This document shows, one piece after another, positions 6,778-63,320 of a stretch of 64,000 nucleotides of DNA (the stretch's first letter is position 1; every line of letters starts with the position of its first letter). The DNA comes from Stentor roeselii (taxonomy: Eukaryota; Ciliophora; Heterotrichea; Heterotrichida; Stentoridae). The translations under genes were made by a program, and so were the position numbers. The stretch spans positions 1 through 64,000 of the forward strand of contig RSEH01000231.1 of the NCBI GenBank assembly GCA_006503475.1, in the 5' to 3' direction. The notes under the pieces were generated by a model that was not told the origin of the DNA, searched no databases, and saw only the letters and a list, made by a program, of their open reading frames with translations.

Positions 6778-7752
6778 TTAGTAGTAGTTTCTTGAGGTTG
6801 ATGAACGTCTTGAAAACTTGAATAAATTGTCAGAATCATCTAGAACTGAATAGTTCTTTAGCTCACTTATTTCGTCAAACTCTGAAAAAGCATCTTCCTG
6901 TGAAATGAGTGCACTTTTATTAATGAAATACGAGGATTTAAGCATTTGTTTTTTGATAGAATCAGTAAGTCTTTCGTGCTCGTCTAATGGGTTGAAGTTT
7001 GATCTCGCGTTTGGGTCTTTGGGACAATCTTTGTATGAATGTCCTGAAGACCTGCAGCTCTAATTAAGTTTTACTGAACAAAAGATGACTTTTTCGTCAT
7101 CTTCTGGAGGTTCTTCTTTTGTCTCTGAGATATGCTTTGTTACAATGCATCCTGCTGCATTTTTTTCTGTTTTACCACAGCACCAGTACATGGTTCCGTT
7201 AAAACCTGAAAGATGGGTTTTACATGACCAGTTAAAGTTTTCTTCAGCATTAAAAATCTTTTTGCAATTTTTACAAACCCCATCATAAATTCCTTTAACA
7301 TGTACTCTATTATTTTTCCTCAAATTATGAATTTCTGCATTAAGTACTTCATTTTGTTTTTCAAGTTCTTTCAGGTTCAACATAATTTCTTCATTTTTTT
7401 TGTAAAGATTTCCTTTTTCTTCCTGTTCAATTTTAAGTCGATCATTAAAAAGTTTCACAGCTTTTTCAACTTTTTCAGCATATCCTTTTTTGTAATTTAA
7501 AACATAAACTAATTCATCATTCAATCCCTGAGAAGTCTTCAAAAGTTCAGAAAAATTTTCAGAAAGAATTTTTTCAGTCTTGAAGTATTTTTCATGATTA
7601 TCTCTGATAATCTGGCATTCTTGTTGAAACTTATTTAAAAAAAAGTACCCTCCAATCATTTCATTGAAATAAAAAGTAAGTCCTTTAAGTCTTTCCACAA
7701 TGACATCATTTTCAATTTTAAGTAAATTACTGAAACTTTCAATTTTAATCAT
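6778..7752 (-). CDS. Coiled-coil protein with CHORD-like zinc region and CCHC knuckle (two exons)
   Basis: The first exon (7752-7075) encodes 226 residues: a helical coiled-coil part to about residue 150, then a Cys/His-rich region with CKNCKKIF, CKTH, YWCCGK, GC and a final H. The order C-x2-C, C-x2-H, CC, GC, H resembles a CHORD zinc-binding module. A 15-nt intron at 7060-7074 removes a stop. The second exon (7059-6778) adds 93 residues beginning CSSCRSSGHSYKDC across the junction, an exact CX2CX4HX4C zinc knuckle that exists only after splicing. The predicted total is 319 residues. The family is unknown; nucleic-acid or protein binding through zinc is inferred. Only 45 bp separate it from the upstream gene on the same strand. 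Confidence 0.75.
7060..7074 (-). other. 15-nt intron
   Basis: Minus-strand GTAAAACTTAATTAG. Without splicing the frame ends at the TAG inside it. With splicing a CX2CX4HX4C zinc knuckle is formed across the junction and the frame stays open for 93 more codons. It has A at position 4 and TA at positions 9-10. Confidence 0.85.
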
Positions 7753-14037: not shown

Positions 14038-14658
14038 ATGAACCCATACAAGGTAAGAGGTCCAAGAGTGAAATGCCTAACAATGATAACCCCAACCGAC
14101 GGGACATTATCAACAGAAGAAACCGCATTAGCAAAGCTTCACTTCAGCAAGTTCGACACAGACAGTTCAGGTTCAATAGACATCGAAGAGCTTCCATCCC
14201 TTCTAAGACACATGGGAATTCACATGGAAAAAGAAAGACTCGATCGTTACTATTTCATCTTCTTCGGTCCAGGGCTTGACACGATGGAGCCCAAACTTGC
14301 CTGGGAACGTTTTTGTGTGATTTTAGGAATGCTTCTAAGAAATCAACTTCCTGTAAGCTTTATTTAGATTTTCCGATTAAGACTTGTATCACAAACTCAA
14401 GAAGCTGATTATATTGAATTCGCGAAAAGAGGACTTCAAGATGCGGAGTTCATTTTTTCAGAGTTTGATCGAGATGAAAGCGGATTTTTAGATCAGAAAG
14501 AATTAAAAAATCTTTTTTTGTGTCTTGGAATTGGACAAGGAGTGGACCTTGATGAATTCGTGGAAAAACAAATGAAGGTTTTGGATAAGGACCAGGATCA
14601 AAAAGTTTCATTTGATGAGTTTGTGGATTGTTACAACAATTTGATGGATTTGATTTAA
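14038..14658 (+). CDS. Calmodulin-like EF-hand protein (two exons)
   Basis: Exon 1 (14038-14352) encodes 105 residues and exon 2 (14368-14658) adds 96, giving 201 residues. Three good EF-hand loops are visible: DTDSSGSIDIEE in exon 1, and DRDESGFLDQKE and DKDQDQKVSFDE in exon 2. A fourth, near the exon boundary, is degenerate. The layout matches calmodulin/centrin-like Ca2+ sensors with a 30-residue N-terminal extension. No acylation motif or membrane helix is present. Without splicing the frame stops at a TAG inside the intron, which would cut the protein in half and remove two hands. The gene converges on NBR1 with 21 bp between stops. Confidence 0.88.
14353..14367 (+). other. 15-nt intron
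   Basis: GTAAGCTTTATTTAG interrupts the EF-hand gene. Its removal joins two EF-hand-bearing frames. A at position 4 and TA at positions 9-10, as in the other introns here. Confidence 0.9.
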
Positions 14659-21025: not shown

Positions 21026-22990
21026 ATGGGAGGAGGAAAAAGTAAAAATCTTGTTTATTCTGTAAATGTTCCTGAAACTGATGAAATCGAGTATTCCCCT
21101 GTACTTCGTCATCCAGATGCAAAGGATGTGATCATCACTCCGACTATCTGGGGCTGTTCACTTTTCTGTCCACTTTTCCAGTGATTTTTACTCAGGAAAA
21201 TCGTGCAAAAAAACCATTCCAAGCCTTTTCTCGGCTTTCGTCCTTTCGAGTCTTCCGATTACGAGTGGCTGAGCTACAGCAAGACCTTGACTTTCCTGAG
21301 TCAAATCTCCCGTAGTTTAGACTCTCTTCAACTAAAACCTGACATTTACCTTTCATCTGAATTCCAGAAAACTTTTTCACTTCTGGGCTTTTTCGGTCAT
21401 TCTAAAGTCGAATGGCTGCTTCTCTTAATAGCTTGCATGAGGACCAATATTGTCACTGTCGGACTTTTTGATAACTTTGAGTCTTTCGTGGGGTGGGCAG
21501 AAGAACTTGAACTTAAGTATCTTTGCACTGACTCTTCGAAACTTGAAACTATTAGACAAGGAATCAGTTCGGGCATCTTGTCTTTGGAGATTATTATTTG
21601 CTTTGACCAGGTCAGTCAGGAGTGCAAGGATTTGTTTGCTGATATTCATGTTAGACTTTTAAGCTTTGAGAACTTTGTTAGGGGTGACTCTAGTTGTGGG
21701 GTTTCTAATGTGACCCCTGATGATCCTTGCTTTCTTGCTTTGACTAGTGGAACTACTGGACCTGCTAAATTTTGTGTGGTGAGTCATTCGAATTTGATGA
21801 GCAACTTGTCGGCTAGTTTGTACCTGGCACAAACAATAACTAATGAAGAAACCTACCTAAGCTACTTAAACTTTTCCCTTCTCGGCGAAATCCTCTTCAT
21901 TTTTCTACTCGCAGCGTCCGAGGGCCGAGTAGGTCTCGCGCGTAGTCCATCATCACTATCATCAGACGCCCAAGTGTTAAAGCCAACGATGATGTTAGTA
22001 GTTCCTCGAATCCTGGAATACATTCACGACCTAATCAAATCCAAAGTAGAAAATCTATCAGGAGTATCAAGATCTCTTTACAACCGTGCATTTGCCACAA
22101 AATTAAAGAATTACGAAAGGACAGGAGCACTTAAACATAAAATTTGGGATGCTCTCGTCTTTGGCAAAGCGAAAAACGTGCTTGGAGGCCATTTGAAGAT
22201 AATTGTTACAGGAATTTCAATGTGTCCTCCAGATCTCGTTCGATTTGTAAGAATTGTTCTTGGATGTGATGTTCTTGAAGGATATGGAATTATTGAAGCT
22301 GGAATTTCGAATTTTGTTTCACAGCCAGGCGATGTCTTGACTGGGCATATCGGAGGACCTTTGATGAATCTTGAGGCAAGGCTGCATTATACTGGACTTT
22401 TGTTTGATGAACTTAGTCATTATTATGGAGAACTTTATGTTAGAGGCCCTGGGGTCTGCAGTAGGTATTATAAAAAAGGAGATGTTATTCATCGTAATGG
22501 CTGGATGGCCACTGGAGACCTAGTCGCTATAATCCCCGAAACAGGAGCTTTCACTTTCATCGATCGAATCGAAAACATCTTCAAATCTCGTTCAGGAAAA
22601 TGTGTATGTCTTCAAAAACTCGAGGTTCTTTATAGAACATCCAAAGCTGTCGCTCAAATATGCTGTTTTTCTGATATTAAAATCGAAGGAATCATTGCTG
22701 TTGTCGTCCCTGATCTCGAATTCGTAAGAACAAAATGGAAGACAGGCAACGCTGAAAGATTTTGCAAAAGTGAAGAATTTTCTCAGGCAATGATCCGCGA
22801 ATTCCTAGTAATTGAAAGGGTTTATAAGTTAAGACCTCATGAAAAAGTTGTGAAAATCGTGGTTGAACTGGAGCCTTGGACTTCTGAAGAACTTGTGACT
22901 CCTACTTTGAAAATTAAAAGATTCATGATTCGATTGAAATACGCTGACCAAATTGATAAGGTTATTAAAGATTACATTAGCGATTTTTAA
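21026..22990 (+). CDS. Long-chain acyl-CoA synthetase (AMP-binding family, two exons)
   Basis: Exon 1 (21026-21180) and exon 2 (21196-22990) join across a 15-nt intron to give 649 residues, the usual length for the family. Exon 1 adds MGGGKSKNLVYSV, a likely N-myristoylation start. Landmarks are the AMP/phosphate-binding loop LTSGTTGPAKFCVVSHSN near residue 232, EGYGIIEAG, the hinge motif GWMATGDLVAI and FKSRSGKCVCLQKLEVL near the C-terminus. The enzyme activates fatty acids with ATP and CoA. The usual PKG of the loop reads PAK here, a mild deviation. Codon composition flips from G/T-rich to A/C-rich near 21830 and again near 22525. Confidence 0.9.
21181..21195 (+). other. 15-nt intron
   Basis: GTGATTTTTACTCAG in the acyl-CoA synthetase gene. 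It contains an in-frame stop in the unspliced reading. Splicing joins the ATG-bearing 52-codon first exon to the main frame in phase 2. It has G at position 3, and keeps A at 4 and TA at 9-10. Confidence 0.85.
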
Positions 22991-24717: not shown

Positions 24718-27369
24718 TTAAAAATTATCATCCCAATTCAAAGTCACAGTTTTCGAAGTTTTAATTCTTCCAGGTTTAGCAAAGCGACATTCTTCTCTAT
24801 CAAGTAAAAACTCTCCCATAGGCTGATTATTCCGAAGGGCTTCTTCCACATCAACAGGCTGAAACATGCACTTCGCAGAATAAGGAGGTCTCAGTTGTCG
24901 ACTTAAAAGTCGATCCCAGCTGAAGCCGTTGAACCAGGCCGTTTTTTTTACAGTCCCGAAGCCTCCACAGGTCCTTGCAGCAGGGTTTTTAGTGAGCAGC
25001 TGAGTGATTAAAGGTTTAAGTTCAGGAGACTTGTAAGGAAAACCAGAGAAGTCTAACTTGTTTTCTAAAATTTTCTCATAAATCGTCACCGGGTCTTCAT
25101 CGTCAGGGGCGAAAGGAACTGAGCCAAAAACGAGTTCATGAAGAAGAACTCCAAGACTCCACCAGTCAACACTAAAGGAATACCCAGTCCTTAAAATGAT
25201 TTCAGGTGCTAAGTAATGAGGAGTGCCAATAGCAGTGTAAGTCCTGCCTTCTACAATATTCGCAGCTCCAAAATCAATTAACTTGATATAACCTTCCTCG
25301 TCAATCACGACATTTTCTGGTTTAACATCTCGATGAATTATTTTCCGTTCATGTAAGTACTCCAAGGTCACCACTAAAGAAGCAGCGAAGAACTTTGCCT
25401 GCTCTTCAGTGATCTTCCCTAATTCCGCTCTGACATCAAACAAGTCTTTTCCTCTGACATATTCGAGAAGATAGTAAAGTCGAAATTCATCTTTAAAGGT
25501 CTTGATGAGTTTAATGATCATGATATGATCAATCTGCATTAAAATATTTTTTTCCAGAAGTAAATTCGTTTGGATCTGGTTGTCGTTGATGACAGTTCGA
25601 AGCATCGACTTCAGCACATAAAGCGTTTTTCGTGTCTTGTGAACTGCAAGAGTCACGATTCCCAACTCGCCTTTCGCAATGACCTTCACAGGGACCAGGT
25701 CTTCAAAAAGCACGGCAGTGTCTTGAAGTTCGATTCTTTGAATTAACTTTTCACGGACCTCGCCGCTGATGATTCTTGTGAAGTCGGATTTTTCAAGAGT
25801 CCAACAACTGACAAGGCCATCAGCGACAATGGTTGCCGTTCGGAAGTCATTGAAAAGAACACTTCTTTCGCCGAAGTAATCGTTTTTTGTGATGCTTCTG
25901 ATGTACCTGTCGTTTCGGTAGACCTTCACAGTGCCTGACTTGATGATGAAGAAAGAGTGTCCAGGGTTGTTTTGTCTGACGATGAAGTCACAGTCTTCAA
26001 AGGTTCGGACTTGCAGAGCTTCAGCCAAAGCCGAGATTTTTTCTTTTTCAAGTCCTTTTAACAGCTGAACCTGCCTTAAAATATTGAGGACGTCGTTTGA
26101 AATCATCACTTGAGAGACTTCTCCACCAATGGCTTTTTCTAGTTTTTTTAAAGAAATAACGGCGACGTCACTTTCTTCAACTGCGAGAAAGTCTTCAAGG
26201 TAAACTTCTTCACTTTTCTTTATAATGTCCTCATCGCCGAGACATTGAAGAGGCTCGACTTGACGGTCACCTTGAAGTCTTCCGTGAACGAGAATGAAAA
26301 GATGACTTGATTTTAAAAGTCCTTTTGTTATGACTATTTCTCCACGTTTGAATCTTTGAACTTTCGAGTTGTCGATGATTGATTCGCGTTGTGACAGGGA
26401 AAGTGACTTGAATGAAGAAATTTTTTCAAGGGCTAGCTTTTGAGAATTGCGGTAAAGGATGTGGTCTAATGTTGAACCTAAGACTTGTGAAAGACTTTTT
26501 CGCCCGATGGAGATTAAGACAAGGTCTGTTGCTGCTATTATTGTTTGGTGTTGAGGGGTTTGGTACATTAAAGCTTGCTCACCGAAATAGTCTCCTTTGT
26601 GGATCTCGAAGGAGTCGCTACGGTCTGGGTTACATACTGCGAAACCTTCTTTGATTATGTAGAGCATGTCGATGTTGTCGCCTTCTTTGATTACGATTTG
26701 ACCGGAATTCCATCTTTGGGTCACTAGTGCTCCTAAAATAGCTTCTTTTTGAGCGCTGGTCAAAATATTGAAAATGTTGACACTATTTATAAACTTCTTA
26801 TTTTCTTCATAGTCACTCACCCTGATACGTTTCAAAGCCTTCATAAAAGTAAACCGATCAAGTCCCCACAAAATACAAGAATCAACAGTCCTAACAGTCG
26901 CTTTCCTAGGTCGATCATCAATCAATGCAAGCTCTCCAAAGCTTTTCCCAGGTCCCAAAATCCTTCTTTCATTTCCAACACTAACTTCAAGTCTTCCAGA
27001 GCTAACCACAAAAAAGCAACTTCCAGGTTGTCCCTCTTCGAAAATGATTTCTTTTGGAGGGACTTCATAAGACTTGACCTTTTTTATGATTTTCAGCTGG
27101 CCTGATAAGTCAATGCTATTAAAAATGTAGTGATTTTTTAGTACTGAAAGAATGAGTTGAATGTCGGCTTCTGACATGCTTTTATTCGAAATTATTGCGT
27201 TTCGGGCTTCTTTTTGAGAAAAATACTCGAACCTCTCGTCAAGGACTGGCTTTTGATGCTTAATTGATGCTTGTTTTGTGAGGTCTTCCACAATCAATGG
27301 CTTTGTGAGACTGCTGATGTGGTTATTAGAAATTTGTTGAGTTCTACTGCAGTTGATACAGATTCCCAT
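24718..27369 (-). CDS. PKG: cGMP-dependent protein kinase (PKG) with four cyclic-nucleotide-binding domains
   Basis: 883 residues. The start MGICINCS fits myristoylation plus palmitoylation. Four CNB domains follow at about 88-200, 206-320, 325-430 and 435-550. The phosphate-binding cassette is canonical in the first (FGELALIDDRPRKAT) and fourth (FGERSVLFNDFRTAT). It lacks arginine in the second (FGEQALMYQTPQHQT) and is lost in the third. An AGC kinase domain follows at about 565-820 (HRDVKPENVV, IDFGAAN, GTPHYLAPEII), with an AGC C-tail ending WDDNF. Four CNB domains upstream of the kinase are typical of alveolate PKGs, where the third is degenerate. It transduces cGMP signals at membranes. 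Confidence 0.93.
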   Translation of the reverse strand: MGICINCSRTQQISNNHISSLTKPLIVEDLTKQASIKHQKPVLDERFEYFSQKEARNAIISNKSMSEADIQLILSVLKNHYIFNSIDLSGQLKIIKKVKSYEVPPKEIIFEEGQPGSCFFVVSSGRLEVSVGNERRILGPGKSFGELALIDDRPRKATVRTVDSCILWGLDRFTFMKALKRIRVSDYEENKKFINSVNIFNILTSAQKEAILGALVTQRWNSGQIVIKEGDNIDMLYIIKEGFAVCNPDRSDSFEIHKGDYFGEQALMYQTPQHQTIIAATDLVLISIGRKSLSQVLGSTLDHILYRNSQKLALEKISSFKSLSLSQRESIIDNSKVQRFKRGEIVITKGLLKSSHLFILVHGRLQGDRQVEPLQCLGDEDIIKKSEEVYLEDFLAVEESDVAVISLKKLEKAIGGEVSQVMISNDVLNILRQVQLLKGLEKEKISALAEALQVRTFEDCDFIVRQNNPGHSFFIIKSGTVKVYRNDRYIRSITKNDYFGERSVLFNDFRTATIVADGLVSCWTLEKSDFTRIISGEVREKLIQRIELQDTAVLFEDLVPVKVIAKGELGIVTLAVHKTRKTLYVLKSMLRTVINDNQIQTNLLLEKNILMQIDHIMIIKLIKTFKDEFRLYYLLEYVRGKDLFDVRAELGKITEEQAKFFAASLVVTLEYLHERKIIHRDVKPENVVIDEEGYIKLIDFGAANIVEGRTYTAIGTPHYLAPEIILRTGYSFSVDWWSLGVLLHELVFGSVPFAPDDEDPVTIYEKILENKLDFSGFPYKSPELKPLITQLLTKNPAARTCGGFGTVKKTAWFNGFSWDRLLSRQLRPPYSAKCMFQPVDVEEALRNNQPMGEFLLDREECRFAKPGRIKTSKTVTLNWDDNF

Positions 27370-32591: not shown

Positions 32592-34604
32592 ATGACTGGA
32601 GGCTCATCCCTTCTGTGCTGTCGAAAGAAAAAAATTCATCAGGTTCATGACCCAAAAGAACGTGAAGACATCGCCAAACGCCGGTGGCGAAAAATCTGGC
32701 TTCTTCGAAATCTGCTCGTTACAGCTGATGAGTAACCAATAAGCAGGGCGAAGCTCAAAGCGAAAGATTATGCGAAAGGACTTTATGAAGGAATATCTAT
32801 TGAAGCTGGTCATGAGCATGTGGTTAAAAAGAAATGGATTGTTTATCCTTGGTCATTTTCGAAGAGAGCCTGGGACTTGCTCATCGGCGGGCTTAAAGTT
32901 TATTATTGTTTTTCTATACCTTGGTATTTGGCTTTTGGAGGTAACTACGAAGGAAGTGTGATTCCCTGGGACTTCGCCTTTGATATTTTGCTGTTTATCG
33001 ACTTAATCATTCGTTTTTTCTCAGCATTTGTTGTAGACTCTAAATTAATTGACGACCAAACAGAAATCATAAAAAGAGCAATAAAAGAAGGTTTCATAAT
33101 CGACTTAATCTGCGTAATTCCCTGGTACGCAGTTTACAACGAGTTGATGTGGTTCCGAATTCTCCGTCTCCTTCAAGTGACCCAGTTAAGAACAGCTCTA
33201 GAAAAAGCAGTAATGATTAAATAGAAACTACTCGAAAAACTTCTAGACTGGCTTTCATTCAACGACTACAACAGCAAGCAAAGTTTCTTAAGAATCACAA
33301 ATTTCATAATGATGCTTTGCGTGATCTGTCATAACATCACCTGCTTCTTTTACCTCCTAGCCAAAAACGAGGACATCCCCATCGAAACCACTTATTTGGG
33401 CAATGCAGACCTGAACAACGAGCAGATCTACGTGAAAACCTTGTACTACGTCATTACAACCATTTCAACTGTAGGTTACGGAGACATTTCACCTAAGACT
33501 TCAAAAGAAATCGCTTTCGTCATGTTCATTCAATTTCTTGGAGTCGTGATTTTTGCTTATTTAACTGGAAATATCACCTCGATTCTTATGAACTTAAACC
33601 AGCGAGAAAAAATGCTCAGTGAAAAAGAAATCAATCTTGATAAATGGTTCCTTGACATGAAAACTAACAAAAGTCACTCAATACCTGAAGATCTTCATAA
33701 AAGTATTCGAGAGTATTTCTTGTATTACTGGGAAAATGACCATTCTAGTCTTCTCACTGAGACCAACTTCTTGATGAGAATGCCTTTGAACTTGAGGAAT
33801 CAGTTTTTGGATTATTTGTTCTCTGATGAAATTAAACATTTTCAGGTATTTTTTAATGATCTTGATCTTCCGCTTAAGTATCAGATGATGCTTTCTATGT
33901 TTCCGAGAATTGTTGAAGAAAAAGCTATTGCTGTTGAAAAAAATGATGAAGTTGAAGAAATTTTTATTATTAGAAGGGGAAAAGTTTTGTTGACAACGAA
34001 AAATAATGTGAGTTTCTTGGTTTTAGGTGAAAAAAGCTTCTTTGGTGAAGAGTTTGTGTTGTTTGATATTAGGCCCAAGATTAATTTTGTCGCTGATGAC
34101 GGAGGATTGGAATGTTTCTGTATTAAGAAGGGAAAATATTTGGAAATGCTTGACAGGTTTCCGAATAGTTATCAGGTGTTGATTAGAAGAGCGTTTAAGA
34201 GGAATAAGTACTTTGAAGCTGTGATGTTTTCTAGTGTCAATAATGACGACATCGGAGAAGATGGAGTAAAATTTATCAAAACCAAGTCGATGAAATCAGG
34301 AGCAAACGATTACCTTGAAAACTTTTCCTGGGACTTAACCGACGAAGAAACACTAGAACTAAAAGACCTAATCAAGAAAAAAAGTGAAACAACTGTAAAA
34401 GACAAGATCGTAGAAAACATCCAAAGCAACCAAAAAACAATGAACATCCTTCAAGACAACGTAGAAAAAATAACGAACAAAGTCGACCAAATCAAGCAAT
34501 TTTACGAAAAAGACATGAAAGACTTGGTAAATATCATCACCCTACTGCGAGACGGTCAAACCACTGAGGCGAACAAAATACTGTCGAGTCTAAAGCTTAG
34601 TTAG
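32592..34604 (+). CDS. Voltage-gated-type K+ channel with cyclic-nucleotide-binding domain (three exons)
   Basis: Exons 32592-32731, 32747-33209 and 33225-34604 join across two 15-nt introns to give 660 residues. The N-terminal cytosolic helix is followed by S1 to S6. The pore carries the K+ filter TISTVGYGDISP near residue 283. S4 is weakly charged (WFRILRLLQVTQLRTALEK). A C-linker and CNBD follow at about 395-515. The phosphate-binding cassette reads FGEEFVLFDIRPKINF and lacks the usual Arg-Thr, so cyclic-nucleotide binding is doubtful, as in EAG-type channels. A C-terminal coiled coil (about 590-650) may tetramerise it. It converges on the Rieske gene with 9 bp between stops. Confidence 0.92.
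32732..32746 (+). other. 15-nt intron
   Basis: GTAACCAATAAGCAG, first intron of the K+ channel gene. It removes an in-frame TAA and joins the 47-codon first exon to the main frame in phase 2. A at 4, TA at 9-10. Confidence 0.88.
33210..33224 (+). other. 15-nt intron
   Basis: GTAATGATTAAATAG, second intron of the K+ channel gene, in phase 0 and ending with an in-frame TAG when unspliced. It separates the S4 region from S5 and the pore. A at 4, TA at 9-10. Confidence 0.9.
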
Positions 34605-54878: not shown

Positions 54879-57800
54879 ATGAATGGATATGCTTATAATA
54901 TGGAACTTGCAAGCGTGGATCTCAAAAGTAGTCTACTCAGTGCAGGACATCAGGAAAGCTATCAGCAGCATCAGAAACTAGTCCGCACATATGAAGAAAT
55001 CCTCGAGAGCGAGTTAAAAAGGGCAAATCCAATCCTCAAGGGCCATACAAATGCAGTGAAAGGCATCGCGCTGACTTCTGACAACTCTTTTCTTATCAGC
55101 TGCGGCAAAGACAACACTCTCCGAATCTGGAGCCTTATCGACAGAGTCCAAGAGCAAATATTCGATATCCAGGTGGACCAAGGCACAGATATATCATCAA
55201 TGGTCTTATCCCCTGACAACAAATTCGTGATTTTGGTTATTTCTGAAAAGTACCTCTTGATTCGAACCCTTGACAGTATATCAACGACGACAAGAGTTGA
55301 AGGGAAGGAAAGAGTGACGATCAAATCAGTGGCAATCTCGAATGACAGTCAACTATTCTGCACAGCTGACAGTGAAAAGACAGTAACAGTCTATGACTTA
55401 AAAGGAACTGTGGTCAAAACTCATAAAATTGAAGATAGCATCTTGACTTTTGTTCTTTTTGCTAACAAAGTTATTCTCATTGGAGGGATGTCTGGAAAGA
55501 TCAGAGGTTGGAACACCTTGACTACAGCTTTTGAATACACCTTGGAACATACAGACTATGCTACAGCTGCAGTGCTTTATGAGAATAATCGATACTTGGC
55601 TGCAGGCTACTCGAGTGGAGAAGTGATTGTCTGGAACTTGCTTGAAAACAGTAAAGAATTTTATATTGATACTCAATATTCAGGAACTCCAAATGGAATC
55701 AGCTATTCCAGTAACTCTGAGAATAAAACTATTGTGTTTAGTAACAATAAACAAGAAGTCATCTTTGTAGACCTTATCAGGAAAAATGTTAAAAGGGCTT
55801 TTGTTCGTCATTCTAGCACTATCAGTGGAGTTTTGCAAAGTATGGATGGTAGACTAGTCATCACAGCTTCTTATGATAAACTCATAAAAATTTGGCAGGA
55901 AGGAGAACTCAGGGACCATAAAGCGTCTTCTAAGTTTGGAAAGGATATCAAATGCAGTGCTCTTGATAAGAATAGTGATTTGATAGCTATCGCTTATAAT
56001 GATTCTTCTGTTAAAGTAATTAACATTGCTGAGGATAAGGAAAAGTTTAGTTTGTCATGGAAGGGTCAAAGTGTTTCCACAGCTATCTGGAGTCACGACA
56101 AAAAACAGTTGATAACTTCTAACAGTACCCCTGAAATCTCAGTCTTTTCAAGCGAGAGCAAATCATTAGAATTCGTGATACCCTGTGATTCAACAATGAA
56201 TTGCTTATTCCTTTCACCTGATTCAAAAATTCTCTATGGCTGCTCAGAAAAAGGCAAGATAATATCTTGGAACTATCAAGAAAGGACGATAAACCATGAG
56301 TTTGAAAGTGAAGGTTCATCATCCCCCTGCGTCCTTGCCTTTTCACCTGACTGGACCAAGATGTACTCAGGAGACGGCAGCATCATCAACATCTGGGACC
56401 TGGCCTCGAAGACCATTGAGACCAAACTCGAAGACAACAACACTTCAGTTAAGTGTCTTGTGCCTTTGTCGAATGGAAAAACGTTGATCAGCGGAGGAGA
56501 TGGAGGCCAAGTCAACTTCTGGAACTTAGAAGAAAATCAGATAGACGTCAGCATCGATGAAGAATCTGCCTGGGCTCGAGCTATGGACTTGTTCAATAAA
56601 GAGAAGTTCTTAGTTATAGTTCATGATAATCCTCAAGTCACAGTGGTCAATGTTGAAGAGAAAAAGATTGAATATGAATTCCAAGTGAGTCAACAATACT
56701 CATGCAAAGTTTTAAATGACAAGACATTAATCATGGGAGACATGAATAACATCCGATTTTATAACTTGACTGAACAGAAAGAAGAAGCAGTCATTAAAGC
56801 TCATACAAGGTCGATCTGCACTTTACTTATCGATAATGACAGTCTGATCAGCTGCTCGGCTGACAGGTCAATCAAGAGCTGGAAACTCAGTGATAAAAGT
56901 AATAATGGAAATTATCAAGCTTTCTGTAATAAAATCAGCACTATCTGTTTATCAAAAGATTACCTTGGTGTAGCGACTGAAGAAGGAATAGTTATGATTT
57001 ATCCAACTAATTCAAAGAGACAGATAAAGAGTTTGCAAGTTCATTCATCAAATATAAACAGTCTAGAATTATACGGCAGAAACTTTGCGACTGGCTCAGA
57101 TGATAAAAAAGTTGGAATTTTTGATGTGAATAATTATAAAGTTCATTACATCGAAGGTCATTCTAGCAGTGTTAGGTGTGTCAAATTCTCGAGTGATGGA
57201 AAAATGGTTTTTTCTGCTTCTGATGATGCTTTGATCAAAGCTTGGAATGTTGAGAAAAAGACTCTGGAATTTATACTTAAAGGACATCAAAAATGGATCT
57301 ATTCGCTTTGTGTGTTTCCCAGTGGAAATTTCATTGCAAGCTCTTCGGGTGATGGAAAGGTTAAGGTTTGGGATCTAGAACTTCGAAAGGAAGATTTTTC
57401 ATTTGAGAACCACTCAAAGACTGTTAACGCTCTTTGTATTTCTGACGATGAGGAGATCCTATTCAGTGGCTCAAATGGTAGCTCAATAGCGGCACTCACT
57501 TTAAGTGGCAAAAGACTGATTTGCTCAATGACAGGCCATTCATCATTTATCAATAGCCTAGCTCTTTACAAAAACGTTTTATTCAGTACCTCAAAAGAAG
57601 AAATCAAGAACTGGCTGTATAAAGAGAAAAAAGAAATCTTAAGTTTTGGCTGGGATACTACTGGCTATGCAACCTGTTTAGTTTTGAGTCCAGATGAGAA
57701 ATACCTGGCCGCTACTTTTGATGATAAAACAGTCAGAATATACGATTTCAAACAAGGAAAATTTTTACAAACCTTCCAACCGTTCAGCTCAAGTATTCCA

Positions 57801-60800
57801 ATGCTGTCTTTTACTAAAGATTCTAAAAGTCTTCTCCTTTCAATTCGAGATTCAGATAAAATGATTTGGGACATAGAAGAAAATCAAGGTCATATACTCC
57901 CAGGTACTAAAAGTTATTCGAGTTATTTTAAGTTTTCACCTGACTTTTCCTTGTTGGCCACTTTTTCTAATGATTTCAAGGCTATTGTTTGGAACTGGAC
58001 TGAAAAAAAGATTTTGCATAGTCTTGAAGGACATGGGAACTCCTCACAAGCCATGATTTTTTCACATGATAATAAGTTCTTGTTTGTTGGAACTGATGGT
58101 GGAGCGGTGTTCAAGTGGAATCTCGAAACACTAGAAAAAAATAATTTCAAAGAGCATAGAAATGGTGTTATAAGACTTGCTTTCTCTGAGAGTAGAAATT
58201 TACTGATTTCAGCAGAGAAAGATCGAAAAATTATCTTTTATGATCTTGAAAAAAATGAAATTATTAAAGCTGAAGTTAAGAATTTTGACGAAATTAAAAC
58301 TATGACTATAACAAAAGATGAAAAGTTTCTGATTGTTGCTGGAAGTAATCCAGTCATAATCGTTTGGGATTTAGATTCCAAAACCGAGTCATTCAGAATG
58401 CAAGGCCATTCATATTTCACCCACGACATCGCAGTTTCATCTGATAGCAACAACCTGTACTCCTGTTCAGGAGACAAGTTAATCCAGCGCTGGTCCTTAC
58501 ACGAGAAAAGACAGCTTGGCAATCTGCGATTCATTTCTGGAAACATTTACTCAATAGTCATTACTAAAGACGGTTCCAGGGCATATACAGGGTCAGACAA
58601 ATCCACAATAAACGTTTTCGACCTTGCTTCAAAAAAAGAAGTAGCCTGTCTTTGCAGCGATTCACAAACCGTCTGTTCACTCGCTCTTAGCGAAGACGAG
58701 ACTCTTCTAGTCTCAGGCTCTTCTGACACCACCGTCAGAGTCTTAGAAACCTCAACCTTCGCCGAAGTAGCTCGTTTCAAAGGTGTTCAAAGGAACTGGG
58801 TGAATTCAGTGGCGATTACCAGGAACAAAAAGCACGTAATCAGTATTTCCAATGACGAGACTATTGTTTTTTGGAACCTGGAGAACAAGGAAAAAGAATT
58901 CACTCTAGAAGGCCATAAAAATAAAATCAACAGTCTTCGGCTTACTTTTGATGAAAAATTCTTGATAAGTGCTTCAGATGATGAAACAATCAAACTTTGG
59001 GATATTTTGGATAAATCTGAAGTTTATTCATTTAGTGGTCATACGAAATCTGTCAAGTGTTTGGAAGTTTTTAGAGATAACAAAGGGTTCATTTCAGCGG
59101 GTGAGGATAACTTAATCAAAGCCTGGTCTATTCAGGAAAAGAGAGAAGATTATTCTTTGAATGGACATAATGGAGGTGTTTCAAGTATTAAACTCACTTC
59201 GGATAATTTGAGGCTTATTAGTGGCTCAGTGGATTCGAAAATCATTATTTGGGACTTGGAGAAAAGAATGGTAGAGCATTGTCTTACTGGATTCACTACT
59301 GGAATTCTAGCTGTCAATATCACGGAGCAGGGCGATCTTATGCTTACTTCGGAAAAGGATAATATGTTGAAACTCTGGAAAATGAGTGAATCGAAATCTG
59401 GTATAGACCAGGTAATGACTAGCAAGCCTTTTGTTACTGTTCATACGCCTGATGAAAGGTTTGAATTGACGTATTTATATGGAAGTCTAAGAGAAGTAGC
59501 TAAAAAGAACTCAACTTCAAACAAATTAGAAATGGGAAATGAAGACTTGTATGATCCCTACTACCAGAACCTAATGAAATATTACAACTTACTCGACAGC
59601 ATTCAAGGAGGCCAGTACGAGACTATACTAGATACCTCATCAGACGCGGTTTTCAGTAAGTTCTTGTATACGATCTTCCACATATTAGCCAACTTTGGGA
59701 ATACGAATATTATATCTAGCTTGTTTTCACCTGATATGCAATTAAAAAAGGACTACTTCGGTAAATCTCCTTTATATTATGCCATAATCCAGCAACATCA
59801 AGAATGTGTAGAGAAACTTCTTGCTATTCTGATCATTATCTGTGAATCGAAAGACTTTTCAAGAATCTTCAAGTCACTCTCAGCGATTTCTAATGATATA
59901 CCCTTAATCATCAGAAACTCTTCTAAAAATTTGCATGTTTTACTTCAAAAATGCTTTATTCAAAGTGTTCCCACTTTTGTGAAAATTTCAGAAAATCTGC
60001 CAATTTTTAGATTAAGCACGAATATCTTACCTAATGCTCAACATTTCATTAAAAGTGATACGACTGGAGTTGAAATTATTCCAGTGATTATGAAGTATAC
60101 GCCTTTTACTATTCCTTTCACGATGGGATCTGAGGAATGCATTGATTTCTTAGAATCTATCATTGAGTGCAGTAATTCTAAAATTTATAATACACATCTT
60201 ATTCAGTTTGTCCTGCAGATTCAATGGGACCAGCTTATTGGTTGGGTATTGATATACACCTTACTGCTCTGGTCCAACCTTATCCTTTTAGTCCTCCTTT
60301 TCACTGAGCAAAATAAAATCTTCGAAAGCTGGTCATTGCCAGTTTTCTTATTAGTTAACTTGATGCTAATAATCTGGGAAAGCATTCAAATGTTGATTGG
60401 AGGTCTCAAAAACTACTTCAAAGACCCTTGGAACTTTATCGATTTTTTAAGATTTTGGTTATCAATGGGTTGGGTGGTGATGAACATCCTTCAACTAACA
60501 GATGGTGTAGAATACAGAATTCTTGCCTGGGCCGTAGCTCTCTTTAACTTCACTCGAGGACTGACAGGTTTCCGACTATTCGATGGAACCAGGTACTACG
60601 TGCGACTAATTCTCAGAGCACTTGTCGATATGGGGTACTTCTTCATCATCCTAGGGTACTCGACCATCACCTTCGGAGTCATGTTTCAGGTCTCTCGTCA
60701 CGGAGAGGCCTTCGAATTTAAAACTCTTTGGATGGACTCCTACAGCCTGAACTTTGGAAACTTCGAAGCTCAAGACAACTACAACTTTTCATTTGAGACA

Positions 60801-61229
60801 ATCGCTTATATGCTTGCCACAGTAGTCAATGTCATTTTAATGCTTAATCTTCTCATTGCTATTCTTGGAGATTCTTTTGAGAGCTTTCAGAGTGATATGG
60901 TGTTTGTGGATTATAGTGAAAAAGCATCGGTTATCTTAGAGATTCAGAAAATGTTTTTTTGGGTGAAAAATAATGAAAATAAGTACTTTCATGCGATGTG
61001 CTCTTCTGCTGATGCTCATGAAGAAATGTCCATGGATGAAAAAGTAGAATATTTGATAACGAATCTGGAAAATTCTAGAGAAGAAAATCTGAATCAAGGA
61101 TTAGTTACTAGAAATGTACTTGGGAATGAAATCAAGATGCTTGAAAATAAGTTCCAGGATAAGTTCACTGAAGTTAATGAAAAACTTAACAAGATCTGTG
61201 AGTTCCTTAAAGTGAAATCAGAAGAATAG
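54879..61229 (+). CDS. WD40-repeat/TRP-like ion channel fusion, 2116 aa
   Basis: One uninterrupted frame. Residues about 45-1515 hold roughly 35 WD40 repeats by count of terminal strands (LRIWSL, VIVWNL, IKAWNV, VKVWDL, IKLWDI, IIIWDL and others), enough for about five seven-bladed propellers. A helical linker (about 1540-1780) contains an ankyrin-like FGKSPLYYAIIQQHQECVEKL. Residues about 1785-2000 form six hydrophobic helices of the ion-transport/TRP type: the S2-S3 region NYFKDPWNFIDFLRFWLS, S4 GFRLFDGTRYYVRLILRALV, a pore region YSLNFGNFEAQDN and S6 MLNLLIAILGDSFESFQ. A short C-terminal coiled coil follows. It is probably a cation channel gated or scaffolded by the propellers. The ligand is unknown. 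Confidence 0.9.
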   Translation: MNGYAYNMELASVDLKSSLLSAGHQESYQQHQKLVRTYEEILESELKRANPILKGHTNAVKGIALTSDNSFLISCGKDNTLRIWSLIDRVQEQIFDIQVDQGTDISSMVLSPDNKFVILVISEKYLLIRTLDSISTTTRVEGKERVTIKSVAISNDSQLFCTADSEKTVTVYDLKGTVVKTHKIEDSILTFVLFANKVILIGGMSGKIRGWNTLTTAFEYTLEHTDYATAAVLYENNRYLAAGYSSGEVIVWNLLENSKEFYIDTQYSGTPNGISYSSNSENKTIVFSNNKQEVIFVDLIRKNVKRAFVRHSSTISGVLQSMDGRLVITASYDKLIKIWQEGELRDHKASSKFGKDIKCSALDKNSDLIAIAYNDSSVKVINIAEDKEKFSLSWKGQSVSTAIWSHDKKQLITSNSTPEISVFSSESKSLEFVIPCDSTMNCLFLSPDSKILYGCSEKGKIISWNYQERTINHEFESEGSSSPCVLAFSPDWTKMYSGDGSIINIWDLASKTIETKLEDNNTSVKCLVPLSNGKTLISGGDGGQVNFWNLEENQIDVSIDEESAWARAMDLFNKEKFLVIVHDNPQVTVVNVEEKKIEYEFQVSQQYSCKVLNDKTLIMGDMNNIRFYNLTEQKEEAVIKAHTRSICTLLIDNDSLISCSADRSIKSWKLSDKSNNGNYQAFCNKISTICLSKDYLGVATEEGIVMIYPTNSKRQIKSLQVHSSNINSLELYGRNFATGSDDKKVGIFDVNNYKVHYIEGHSSSVRCVKFSSDGKMVFSASDDALIKAWNVEKKTLEFILKGHQKWIYSLCVFPSGNFIASSSGDGKVKVWDLELRKEDFSFENHSKTVNALCISDDEEILFSGSNGSSIAALTLSGKRLICSMTGHSSFINSLALYKNVLFSTSKEEIKNWLYKEKKEILSFGWDTTGYATCLVLSPDEKYLAATFDDKTVRIYDFKQGKFLQTFQPFSSSIPMLSFTKDSKSLLLSIRDSDKMIWDIEENQGHILPGTKSYSSYFKFSPDFSLLATFSNDFKAIVWNWTEKKILHSLEGHGNSSQAMIFSHDNKFLFVGTDGGAVFKWNLETLEKNNFKEHRNGVIRLAFSESRNLLISAEKDRKIIFYDLEKNEIIKAEVKNFDEIKTMTITKDEKFLIVAGSNPVIIVWDLDSKTESFRMQGHSYFTHDIAVSSDSNNLYSCSGDKLIQRWSLHEKRQLGNLRFISGNIYSIVITKDGSRAYTGSDKSTINVFDLASKKEVACLCSDSQTVCSLALSEDETLLVSGSSDTTVRVLETSTFAEVARFKGVQRNWVNSVAITRNKKHVISISNDETIVFWNLENKEKEFTLEGHKNKINSLRLTFDEKFLISASDDETIKLWDILDKSEVYSFSGHTKSVKCLEVFRDNKGFISAGEDNLIKAWSIQEKREDYSLNGHNGGVSSIKLTSDNLRLISGSVDSKIIIWDLEKRMVEHCLTGFTTGILAVNITEQGDLMLTSEKDNMLKLWKMSESKSGIDQVMTSKPFVTVHTPDERFELTYLYGSLREVAKKNSTSNKLEMGNEDLYDPYYQNLMKYYNLLDSIQGGQYETILDTSSDAVFSKFLYTIFHILANFGNTNIISSLFSPDMQLKKDYFGKSPLYYAIIQQHQECVEKLLAILIIICESKDFSRIFKSLSAISNDIPLIIRNSSKNLHVLLQKCFIQSVPTFVKISENLPIFRLSTNILPNAQHFIKSDTTGVEIIPVIMKYTPFTIPFTMGSEECIDFLESIIECSNSKIYNTHLIQFVLQIQWDQLIGWVLIYTLLLWSNLILLVLLFTEQNKIFESWSLPVFLLVNLMLIIWESIQMLIGGLKNYFKDPWNFIDFLRFWLSMGWVVMNILQLTDGVEYRILAWAVALFNFTRGLTGFRLFDGTRYYVRLILRALVDMGYFFIILGYSTITFGVMFQVSRHGEAFEFKTLWMDSYSLNFGNFEAQDNYNFSFETIAYMLATVVNVILMLNLLIAILGDSFESFQSDMVFVDYSEKASVILEIQKMFFWVKNNENKYFHAMCSSADAHEEMSMDEKVEYLITNLENSREENLNQGLVTRNVLGNEIKMLENKFQDKFTEVNEKLNKICEFLKVKSEE

Positions 61230-62373
61230 AGGTTTTAATAAGTCAATAGGATAGTTAGTCTTATCAAACGTTTTAGGAATGGTATTCTGATTGCTGCTTG
61301 TTAAGCGAAGAACTACTGAAACCAGGTCTATAAAATAAAGGGTCTGTATATTGACTATCGCTCTGGATTTTTTATGAGGAAATATATTGAAAGGTTATAA
61401 TCTGTTTATCAGGTTTATACTTCCTCCTTGACTGAGGAGCTGGTCAAAGGCATTCTTTCCAGCATGTTCATTGAAAGTTTTCATGTTATAGCAGTTTTCC
61501 AGACTAAATTTCTAATTATAACATAAAAAATATAAAATAGTAATACTTACATATTCCATGAAATACTCAACAGAGCCAAACCATTTGCCTTGAACTGCTG
61601 ATATTTTAGCGAAATTCGAACATTTGTAAAGCATTCTGTAAGGAAGGGAGTCTATGAAGATTAATCAAATCATCTCTTTCATATGACATTCTCCTTGATT
61701 TGAAACGAAATACTGCTATTTTATTATTGTCTGCATATGCCATGTATAAAAAGATAGCCAATTCTGAGATTTTAACTACATAGCTATTACAAGATATGAA
61801 GAAATGATGGACTTGAGATTTTTGTAAGGTAATTAGTTTTTAAGTTATTCTTGAGATATATTTAAACATCCAAAATTAATCCTATGTCTTGGCACATCAC
61901 AAGGTTTAATAATGTTTCTGTTTCAATCAAAGATAATGTATAGAATGGTCTCTTCTATGAAGAGTAAAACTTGAGTTGATTTGATGCAAACCCTTATTTT
62001 TCTGGTCTTCTACTATTAAACGCTTCTTTGAATTATGGTTGATCATTCTGTATTAATTATCATTTAAAAACTTCCAGTAGTCTTTAAAAAATGACTCATC
62101 ATATATAGACCTTGTCCATTTACTTACATGGTGAAATAAGTATGGCAATAAGTTAAACCCTGAATCTTGAGTCTTATAAATGTATAGCTCTGTTTCAATA
62201 GCTATATTAGAAGTTTATAAAGATAACTCAATATTTTTGAAATTTTTACTTTCCTAATCTAAGGCTTCATTTGCACTCTGGGTACAGACTGCTCCATCTT
62301 CTCTGATAGAGATCTTCGTCCTCACCTGGAAGATGGTCCTCGCATTGTTTTGTTTCTAAGTTCCAAACATCCA

Positions 62374-62570
62374 CTATGTTAGTGATACAGACTTCTTAAT
62401 TCGTTACCTATGTGTAGGTTACTATCTTGATGAAGAATACATTCTTCAATGAAGATTACCCGCTTCATTGTTGATTACATACTTCTTGAAGGTTACAGTC
62501 TTCTTGAAGGTTACAGACTTCGATGTAGGTTACGATCTTCGTTGCATGTTACAATCTTAATCTTTCATAC
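62374..62570 (-). repeat. Tandem array of eleven 15/16-nt intron-like units
   Basis: Reading the minus strand from 62570 to 62374 gives eleven units, each beginning GTA and ending AG: six of 15 nt and five of 16 nt. Nine junctions hold exactly 3 nt and one holds none. Examples are GTAACCTTCAAGAAG (twice), GTAATCAACAATGAAG, GTAACCTACACATAG and GTATCACTAACATAG. Ten of eleven have A at position 10, as in the five confident introns of this window. The internal bases and the 3-nt spacers vary, while the ends do not. The array sits where a WD40 frame must be joined. On the plus strand it appears as a degenerate 18-19 bp minisatellite (GGTTAC...CTTCTTGAA). Confidence 0.7.
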
Positions 62571-62708
62571 CTATATGATCTTCACAATGAAAGAAATATT
62601 TTTCATCATTAGAGATAAAAAATTGTGTTGAGGTTAAGTATATTGTAACGAAGGCCCATTTCTTTTTCACTTGCTCACGTTTCTCTTGAACCTCCATTTG
62701 GTTAAAAG

Positions 62709-62722
62709 CTAAATAATATAAC
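62709..62722 (-). other. Possible 14-nt intron or one-base-shortened intron
   Basis: Minus-strand GTTATATTATTTAG. Its removal links the B-box coiled-coil frame to the following coding-like frame. The A six bases from the 3' end matches the A at position 10 of the 15-nt introns. It is one base shorter than every confident intron here, so it may instead be a decayed intron. Confidence 0.4.
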
Positions 62723-63320
62723 CTTTAACTGCCAATATTTCCGTTTTCGTTTCCCTTTCGCTTTCCATTTTCTGTTCATTTTCTTCTAGAGCTGGTAAGC
62801 TCAAAATACCATGGATGATCTGCTCCTTTTCTTCTAGTTCTGATTTTAAGGGACTTATTTCAGTTGTATAGCTGGTTTCTTTAAATTTGATTGAATCCGA
62901 TTTTACGTTTATCAAAAATATTGGACCATGATCTGTTTCTTCTCGGTGCTTTAATGCATGAGATTGGCAAAAAGACTTCTTAGGTTGACAATATTCGCAA
63001 ACAAATGCAAGTTCTTCGTGGCAGGCTTCAATATAGCAAGACATCTCTATATCCATGATTTTATATGGCAAAAAATTTAAGCATAGATGATCACTCTAGA
63101 ATAAAAGAAGTTTTCTAAAGTATAGTATATATTTCATATAATGATTAAAGAATTTAAAAGACTTAGAAGGGACATTGTATTATAAAATAGGTAAACTAAT
63201 GAATTGTGTTGCGAAATTCTTTGAGTCCTTTCTAATTTTTTATCCGAATACTTAGATTTCGATTTATCCCTTTTCTGATAACTTTCATATTCTTAAGATC
63301 GTTTGATACTCCCAATATAA

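What the first reader, a model, noticed from the sequence alone, without database searches (positions are those of the whole stretch)
62374..62570. Tandem array of mini-introns separated by 3-nt micro-exons
On the minus strand eleven consecutive units of 15 or 16 nt each start GTA and end AG: GTATGAAAGATTAAG, GTAACATGCAACGAAG, GTAACCTACATCGAAG, GTAACCTTCAAGAAG (twice), GTAATCAACAATGAAG, GTAATCTTCATTGAAG, GTATTCTTCATCAAG, GTAACCTACACATAG, GTAACGAATTAAGAAG, GTATCACTAACATAG. The spacers are ATT, ATC, TCT, ACT, TAT, CGG, AAT, ATA, none, TCT. Lengths and the A at position 10 match real introns in this window. Removing all eleven one by one adds nine codons (peptide core YLYLSEYIL) in frame; removing the block as a whole gives DHIVDVWNL, a good WD40 strand. 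The ends are constant while the inside and spacers differ, which suggests either selection on splice sites or amplification of an intron-exon junction. I know of no described intron array of this kind.
Basis: partly seen in the sequence, partly recalled or inferred. Interest (0 to 1): 0.9.

Follow-up and report, generated by a model that had tools for sequence, protein, structure and literature searches.

The report
Tandem repeat of tiny intron-like units

Summary
It is a diverged 18/19-bp tandem repeat (TRF period 19). The window looks like a heterotrich ciliate (Stentor type): 15-nt gene introns with A at position 10. Chain length alone proves nothing: prokaryote and viral contigs hold chains of up to 14 such units. 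The unusual part is where the repeat has not decayed: only the GTA and AG columns are unchanged (0 of 42 parsimony steps; chance that unchanged columns spell GT...AG at intron spacing 96/400000), while interior identity is 0.66 (0 of 79 control chains fall below 0.75). Best reading: a tandemly amplified intron-plus-codon unit whose splice signals were kept by selection, each removed singly. Against: AAG acceptors, too many 16-mers, AT below Stentor introns, weak gene context (no Pfam support, truncated, not called by my gene finder), no RNA data. "No described array" is too strong: amphioxus "mirages" and a Cryptococcus gene with repeat-expanded introns are relatives.

The parts
62374..62570 (-). 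Array of 11 GTA...AG units of 15/16 nt with spacers of 3 or 0 nt; best read as tandemly amplified intron + one codon
   Evidence: exact match; TRF period 19; column conservation
62416..62558 (-). Part recognised as tandem repeat without using splice signals (units 2-8 lie whole inside)
   Evidence: TRF score 90, 7.7 copies, 73% matches; core-only test 1089/300000
62571..62585 (-). Possible twelfth unit, GTG...TAG, 15 nt, A at position 10, spacer 0 to unit 1
   Evidence: chain of 12 with GT..AG; profile score 8.8 bits, reached by 10% of 140 decoys
62571..62697 (-). Putative upstream exon: frame open from ATG (MEVQEK...) up to the array (overlaps the possible twelfth unit)
   Evidence: coding score 0.065 per codon, between in-frame and out-of-frame values
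62267..62373 (-). Putative downstream exon VDVWNLETKQC...PECK with its stop (first base of the V codon lies before the array)
   Evidence: coding score 0.251 per codon; only short open stretches follow
62709..62722 (-). 14-nt GT...AG whose removal joins the B-box-like frame to the array's frame; damaged intron, frameshift or assembly error
   Evidence: seven (30-codon scan) and four (40-codon scan) other 14-nt candidates, so the length class is mostly background
62709..63056 (-). Upstream ORF of 115 codons plus stop, with a B-box-like start
   Evidence: Pfam B-box E=0.16, below cut-off

Best explanation
In a heterotrich-like ciliate gene a 15/16-nt intron together with three nucleotides of neighbouring exon was amplified head to tail into an 18/19-bp repeat. 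Copies then diverged inside and in the codon, but GTA, the branch-point A and AG stayed, because each unit had to be recognised and spliced out: retained, the block brings stops and frame shifts. Each unit is removed on its own, and each leaves one codon (or none), so that 0/3-nt spacers keep the frame whatever set is joined. Shown: the anatomy, the conservation pattern, the absence of an open frame. Inferred: transcription, splicing, the order of events, and selection as the cause. It may be a past state: the gene looks truncated.
For: Only the five end columns of 19 have no change on the best parsimony tree found (42 steps elsewhere; heuristic search, 12 starts); uniform-rate probability 2.7e-6; given five unchanged columns anywhere, with any rotation and strand, 96 of 400000 random draws give GT..AG at 15/16. 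Using only units 2-8, which lie in the TRF array defined without regard to ends: 1089 of 300000. Units 1, 9, 10, 11 keep 20 of 20 end bases but 16 of 40 interior bases of the core consensus (caution, these units were found by their ends). Unit lengths are only 15 or 16, the two lengths Stentor uses, and spacers only 3 or 0. The 15-mers have A10 in 6 of 6; three of five 16-mers have A11, as most Stentor 16-mers do. Control: of 79 chains of >=6 such units in prokaryote and viral contigs, 0 had interior identity below 0.75; the array has 0.66.
Against: Acceptor AAG in 9 of 11, while all six 15-nt candidate introns of the window end TAG or CAG. Five of 11 are 16-mers against 633 of 8806 in Stentor (binomial 6e-4; copies are not independent). 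AT 64% against 70% in the six window introns and 75.6% reported for Stentor. Units 1 and 8 score no better than decoys (65% and 52% of 140 decoys reach them). No Pfam support for the gene; it stops 35 codons after the array; my simple gene finder, which allowed introns of 10-31 nt, put no gene over the array. No RNA data, no second genome.
Confidence: 0.5

Rival explanations
1. A neutral 18/19-bp minisatellite in a dead gene fragment. Its unit may have begun as an intron-exon junction or merely contain GTA and AG; nothing is spliced now and the constancy of the ends is chance, recent homogenisation or the reader's choice of frame.
For: It is a tandem repeat; chains of GTA..AG units of 18 bp are easily found in prokaryote and viral contigs, up to 14 units; host gene truncated, frame broken upstream, no Pfam support, no gene called over it; soft intron features are missing.
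Against: Decay is concentrated away from the splice signals; no control chain of >=6 units is so diverged inside with ends intact (0 of 79).
Confidence: 0.3
2. The block is removed as larger pieces: donor of an early unit to acceptor of a later one (up to 197 nt), giving DHIVDVWNL; inner sites are decoys, as in amphioxus mirages, where the repeats seem not to disturb regular splicing.
For: Block-removed product fits a WD strand slightly better than the nine-codon product (7.0 vs 2.6 bits; Pfam E=0.077 vs no hit at E<=1); mirage precedent.
Against: The Stentor annotation has only 15/16-nt introns and the authors of PMC9505925 think exon skipping may not occur; inner sites should then decay, and they have not.
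Confidence: 0.1
3. A decayed coding repeat on the plus strand: TAC-NNN-CT across each junction reads Tyr-X-Leu of a hexapeptide (EGYSLL-like).
For: The plus strand across units 6 to 3 reads VDYILLEGYSLLEGYRLR; control chains of such units nearly always have period 18 and open frames.
Against: The five 19-bp steps break the frame and all three plus frames hold stops; the third Tyr base (C) is unchanged in 11 of 11, not expected from coding constraint; the junction of units 9 and 10, with spacer 0, lacks the motif.
Confidence: 0.07
4. An array of binding sites AGnnnGTA (DNA or RNA) spaced 18-19 nt.
For: The conserved parts are adjacent across the spacer.
Against: The junction of units 9 and 10 lacks the nnn. 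As RNA it has no unusual structure (fold z -0.35) and no Rfam match at gathering score in the window, though a binding site needs neither.
Confidence: 0.03

Closest known systems
[quoted passage not shown]
   Same: Tandem repeat whose unit holds splice signals and a bit of exon; units reported from 10-72 bp (Adh3) to 150-160 bp (globin).
   Different: There one boundary is duplicated next to a normal intron and regular splicing seems undisturbed; here each unit has both donor and acceptor, at true intron length, and ends are better kept than the inside.
Repeat-expanded introns of Cryptococcus CNN00420 (PMC2395259, passages read)
   Same: Whole intron plus exon ends duplicated in tandem, giving more introns in one gene.
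   Different: Unit about 107 nt, six introns of which four are identical or one base apart, EST-supported; here 18/19 nt, 11 diverged copies, 3-nt exons, no RNA evidence.
Stentor 15/16-nt introns (PMC9505925; first part of six and search passages read)
   Same: Length, GTA, A at 10 or 11, AG.
   Different: Mostly one or a few per gene, 92.8% 15-mers, 75.6% AU. The paper says some genes have more than eight annotated introns and is unsure that all are spliced; its main text does not use the words tandem or micro-exon.
Schistosome micro-exon genes (PMC10526429, start of abstract in a search listing)
   Same: Exons down to 3 bp.
   Different: Separated by long introns, up to 5 kbp; secreted proteins.

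Membership tests
Heterotrich (Stentor-type) tiny introns | Length 15 or 16 nt, GTA...AG | tested here: met
   11 of 11; note that the units were picked by these ends
Heterotrich (Stentor-type) tiny introns | A at position 10 (15-mers) or 11 (16-mers) | tested here: met
   6 of 6 and 3 of 5; paper 8005 of 8173 and 442 of 633
Heterotrich (Stentor-type) tiny introns | Length ratio and base content like the genome's introns | tested here: not met
   5 of 11 are 16-mers, binomial 6e-4; AT 64% vs 75.6% reported
Heterotrich (Stentor-type) tiny introns | Removed from RNA | not testable with these tools
   no RNA data; no whole genome held
Mirage-like intron-exon tandem repeats | Tandem repeat whose unit carries splice signals and exon bases | tested here: inconclusive
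   tandem repeat with GT/AG in each unit; that the 3-nt spacers are exon is inferred
Mirage-like intron-exon tandem repeats | Sits at a true intron boundary of an expressed gene | tested here: inconclusive
   flanks weakly coding, no Pfam family, truncated
WD40 gene | WD repeats recognised by family models | tested here: not met
   no Pfam hit at E<=0.001; E=0.077 at best
Ordinary coding 18-bp repeat | An open frame through the array | tested here: not met
   0 of 6 frames open

The most novel reading that the evidence does not exclude
A working intron array: at least eleven 15/16-nt introns spliced one by one around single-codon exons, made by slippage of an intron-codon unit, so that a gene can gain or lose codons and introns in steps, and can yield many in-frame isoforms by joining any donor to any later acceptor.
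Probability: 0.33. Interest if true: 0.85.

Novelty: new variant of a known kind. Interest (0 to 1): 0.55.

Why it matters
If spliced, it would be the densest intron array I know of (recall, not a search) and a direct case of intron gain by repeat slippage, at a size where intron and exon together are shorter than the footprint of one spliceosome (established knowledge, recalled). It would force removal in sequence and show how a spliceosome picks among sites 3 nt apart. Even if not spliced now, the decay pattern would be a record of splice-site selection on copied introns.

Tried and rejected
Chain length as evidence: rejected, since 239 control loci from prokaryote and viral collections hold chains of up to 14 units. 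WD40 gene as proof of an exon junction: weak. RNA structure: nothing unusual. Plus-strand coding repeat: frame closed. Exact array 24-mer in viral contigs: 0 matches; 3-kb region in plasmids, near mode: no match. Remnant ORFs at 61230-62266 and the exon pieces against the rest of the window: no convincing match, best E 0.06. Whole host genome: not held. Literature: nine searches, of which I saw the listed rows only (between 5 and 20 per search), showed no description of an intron array with 3-nt exons in a ciliate; that says something about those listings of an open-access library only, and the main Stentor genome paper was not held.

Full report
What is there. The minus strand at 62374-62570 holds exactly the eleven units and ten spacers that were reported. 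TRF, which knows nothing of splice sites, finds a period-19 repeat at 62416-62558, 7.7 copies, 73% matches. So this is a diverged tandem repeat; the question is whether its splice signals mean anything. With GT in place of GTA the chain has twelve members: GTGAAGATCATATAG lies directly upstream at 62571-62585.

Host. Long ORFs under the standard code (2137 and 1552 codons the longest) agree with, but do not prove, a standard code. Two scans for GT..AG stretches whose removal joins coding segments gave, taken together, six different 15-mers: 7060-7074 (-), 14353-14367, 21181-21195, 26727-26741, 32732-32746 and 33210-33224 (+). These are all the 15-mers that the scans listed; five come, three (two of them shared), which also demanded that the sense frame beat all other frames. 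All six have A at position 10 and end TAG or CAG. Candidates of other lengths turned up in similar numbers (15 was not the commonest length), so single ones may be false, and I left the 16-mers of those scans out of the profile used below. The separate gene finder kept five 15-mers, all with A10. Spliced products give an ion channel whose Ion_trans match (residues 44-286) spans the intron after residue 158, an AMP-binding enzyme whose match begins just behind its intron, and an EF-hand protein. Introns of 15 nt with A10 point to a heterotrich such as Stentor (PMC9505925); the organism itself is not identified, and no whole genome is held.

Is it more than chance? A Markov null gives chains of at most 2 (20 resamplings), but that is the wrong null for a repeat. 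They hold 333 chains of four or more, 79 of six or more (some overlap), up to 14 units. So such chains arise readily as 18-bp repeats. But 0 of 79 had interior identity under 0.75 and 0 of 79 lacked an open frame; 18 of 79 mixed 15- and 16-mers. The array has interior identity 0.66, no open frame in six, and 6:5 lengths. Limits of this control: the seed pattern demands four fixed 18-bp units, which favours regular coding repeats; a closed frame is also what any AT-rich non-coding stretch of 197 bp would tend to show; viral contigs are not certain to be free of introns.

Where it has decayed. On the best parsimony tree found (42 steps, heuristic search; the 15-mers were given a gap at column 12, the missing spacer counted as unknown, and the three bases behind unit 11 stood in for its spacer), per-column steps are 0 0 0 2 3 4 4 4 3 1 3 5 3 1 0 0 for the unit and 2 4 3 for the spacer. 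The unchanged columns are GTA and AG; next come column 10 (the branch-point place of 15-mers) and the base before AG, with one step each. Under uniform rates zero changes in those five has probability 2.7e-6. Letting any five columns be unchanged, with random bases, any rotation and either strand, 96 of 400000 draws give GT..AG at 15/16. With only units 2-8, which lie inside the TRF array, eight columns are unchanged and 1089 of 300000 draws do so. Units 1, 9, 10 and 11 keep 20 of 20 end bases but 16 of 40 interior bases, though they were recognised by those ends.

What speaks against living introns. Nine of 11 acceptors are AAG, against none of the six window introns. Five of 11 are 16-mers against 633 of 8806 in Stentor (binomial 6e-4). 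AT is 64%, against 70% in the six window introns and a reported 75.6%. On a profile from the six window introns, units 1 and 8 score -0.4 and 1.1 bits, like decoys; the other nine score 4.1 to 11.7, against 5.7 to 10.7 for the window introns when each is left out in turn (16-mers were given their best of ten gap sites, which flatters them). The gene finder called no gene over the array.

The gene. Upstream lies a 115-codon ORF (63056-62712, stop at 62711-62709) with a B-box-like start (Pfam E=0.16, below cut-off). A 14-nt GT...AG at 62709-62722 would join it to the array's frame; 14-nt candidates are common in that scan, so this may be a damaged intron, a frameshift or an assembly error. The frame before the array scores 0.065 per codon and after it 0.251, against 0.198 (sd 0.085) in frame and -0.135 (sd 0.172) out of frame in 40-codon pieces. 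The joined 192-aa product has no Pfam hit at E<=0.001. The product with the block removed has a WD-like strand (7.0 bits on a profile of 11 repeats from the neighbouring WD40 protein; 2.6 bits with the nine codons; shuffling the upstream part gives mean 3.4, maximum 14.4 in 200, so the upstream half adds little that is sure). The gene stops 35 codons later and only short open stretches follow. It may be a truncated or dead gene.

Mechanism. I hold it most likely that slippage or unequal exchange amplified an intron with one codon, and that splice selection kept the ends while the copies diverged. Spacers of 3 or 0 mean that any donor joined to any later acceptor keeps the frame. Removal would have to be sequential, since neighbouring units are closer than a spliceosome's footprint (established knowledge, recalled, not tested). 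Selection may have ended when the gene broke.

Known relatives. Amphioxus mirages are tandem repeats of intron-exon boundaries, with units of 10-72 bp in Adh3, and seem not to disturb splicing (PMC3087553, passages). A Cryptococcus gene gained introns by expansion of a ~107-nt repeat holding a whole intron, with EST support (PMC2395259, passages). A three-bp exon is known in Drosophila homothorax (PMC7392893, listing only), and schistosome micro-exon genes have exons from 3 bp (PMC10526429, abstract start in listing). The Stentor intron paper says that some genes have more than eight annotated introns and is unsure that all are spliced; arrays like this may be among them, which I could not check. 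The main Stentor genome paper was not held. What appears new here is scale: whole introns of 15/16 nt with single-codon exons, eleven or twelve in a row.

Verdict. A real and unusual repeat, a new variant of a known kind, with splicing the open question.

Noticed in passing
62571-62585 (-): GTG...TAG 15-mer with A10 directly upstream of unit 1; a possible twelfth intron, which would make the DHI codons intronic.
   Followed up: partly
62709-62722 (-): 14-nt GT...AG whose removal restores the frame from the B-box-like ORF to the array; T-rich and ending TAG like Stentor introns, but one base short and beginning GTT.
   Followed up: partly
61230-62266 (-): About 1 kb without a called gene on the minus strand but with protein-like stretches in several frames; may be gene remnants.
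   Followed up: partly
54900-61229 (+): 2109-aa protein rich in WD40 repeats (Pfam WD40 E=2e-118), whose gene ends about 1 kb from the array, on the other strand.
   Followed up: no
32592-34604 (+): Ion channel gene (Ion_trans E=5.7e-16) with a cyclic-nucleotide-binding-like domain below cut-off and two candidate small introns, the first of which can be read as 12 or 15 nt.
   Followed up: partly
L170:11332 (+), also L145, L167, L186: Chains of 13-14 GTA..AG units of 15 nt with 3-nt spacers in viral contigs, open in three or four of six frames: regular 18-bp repeats, a warning against chain length as evidence for introns.
   Followed up: partly
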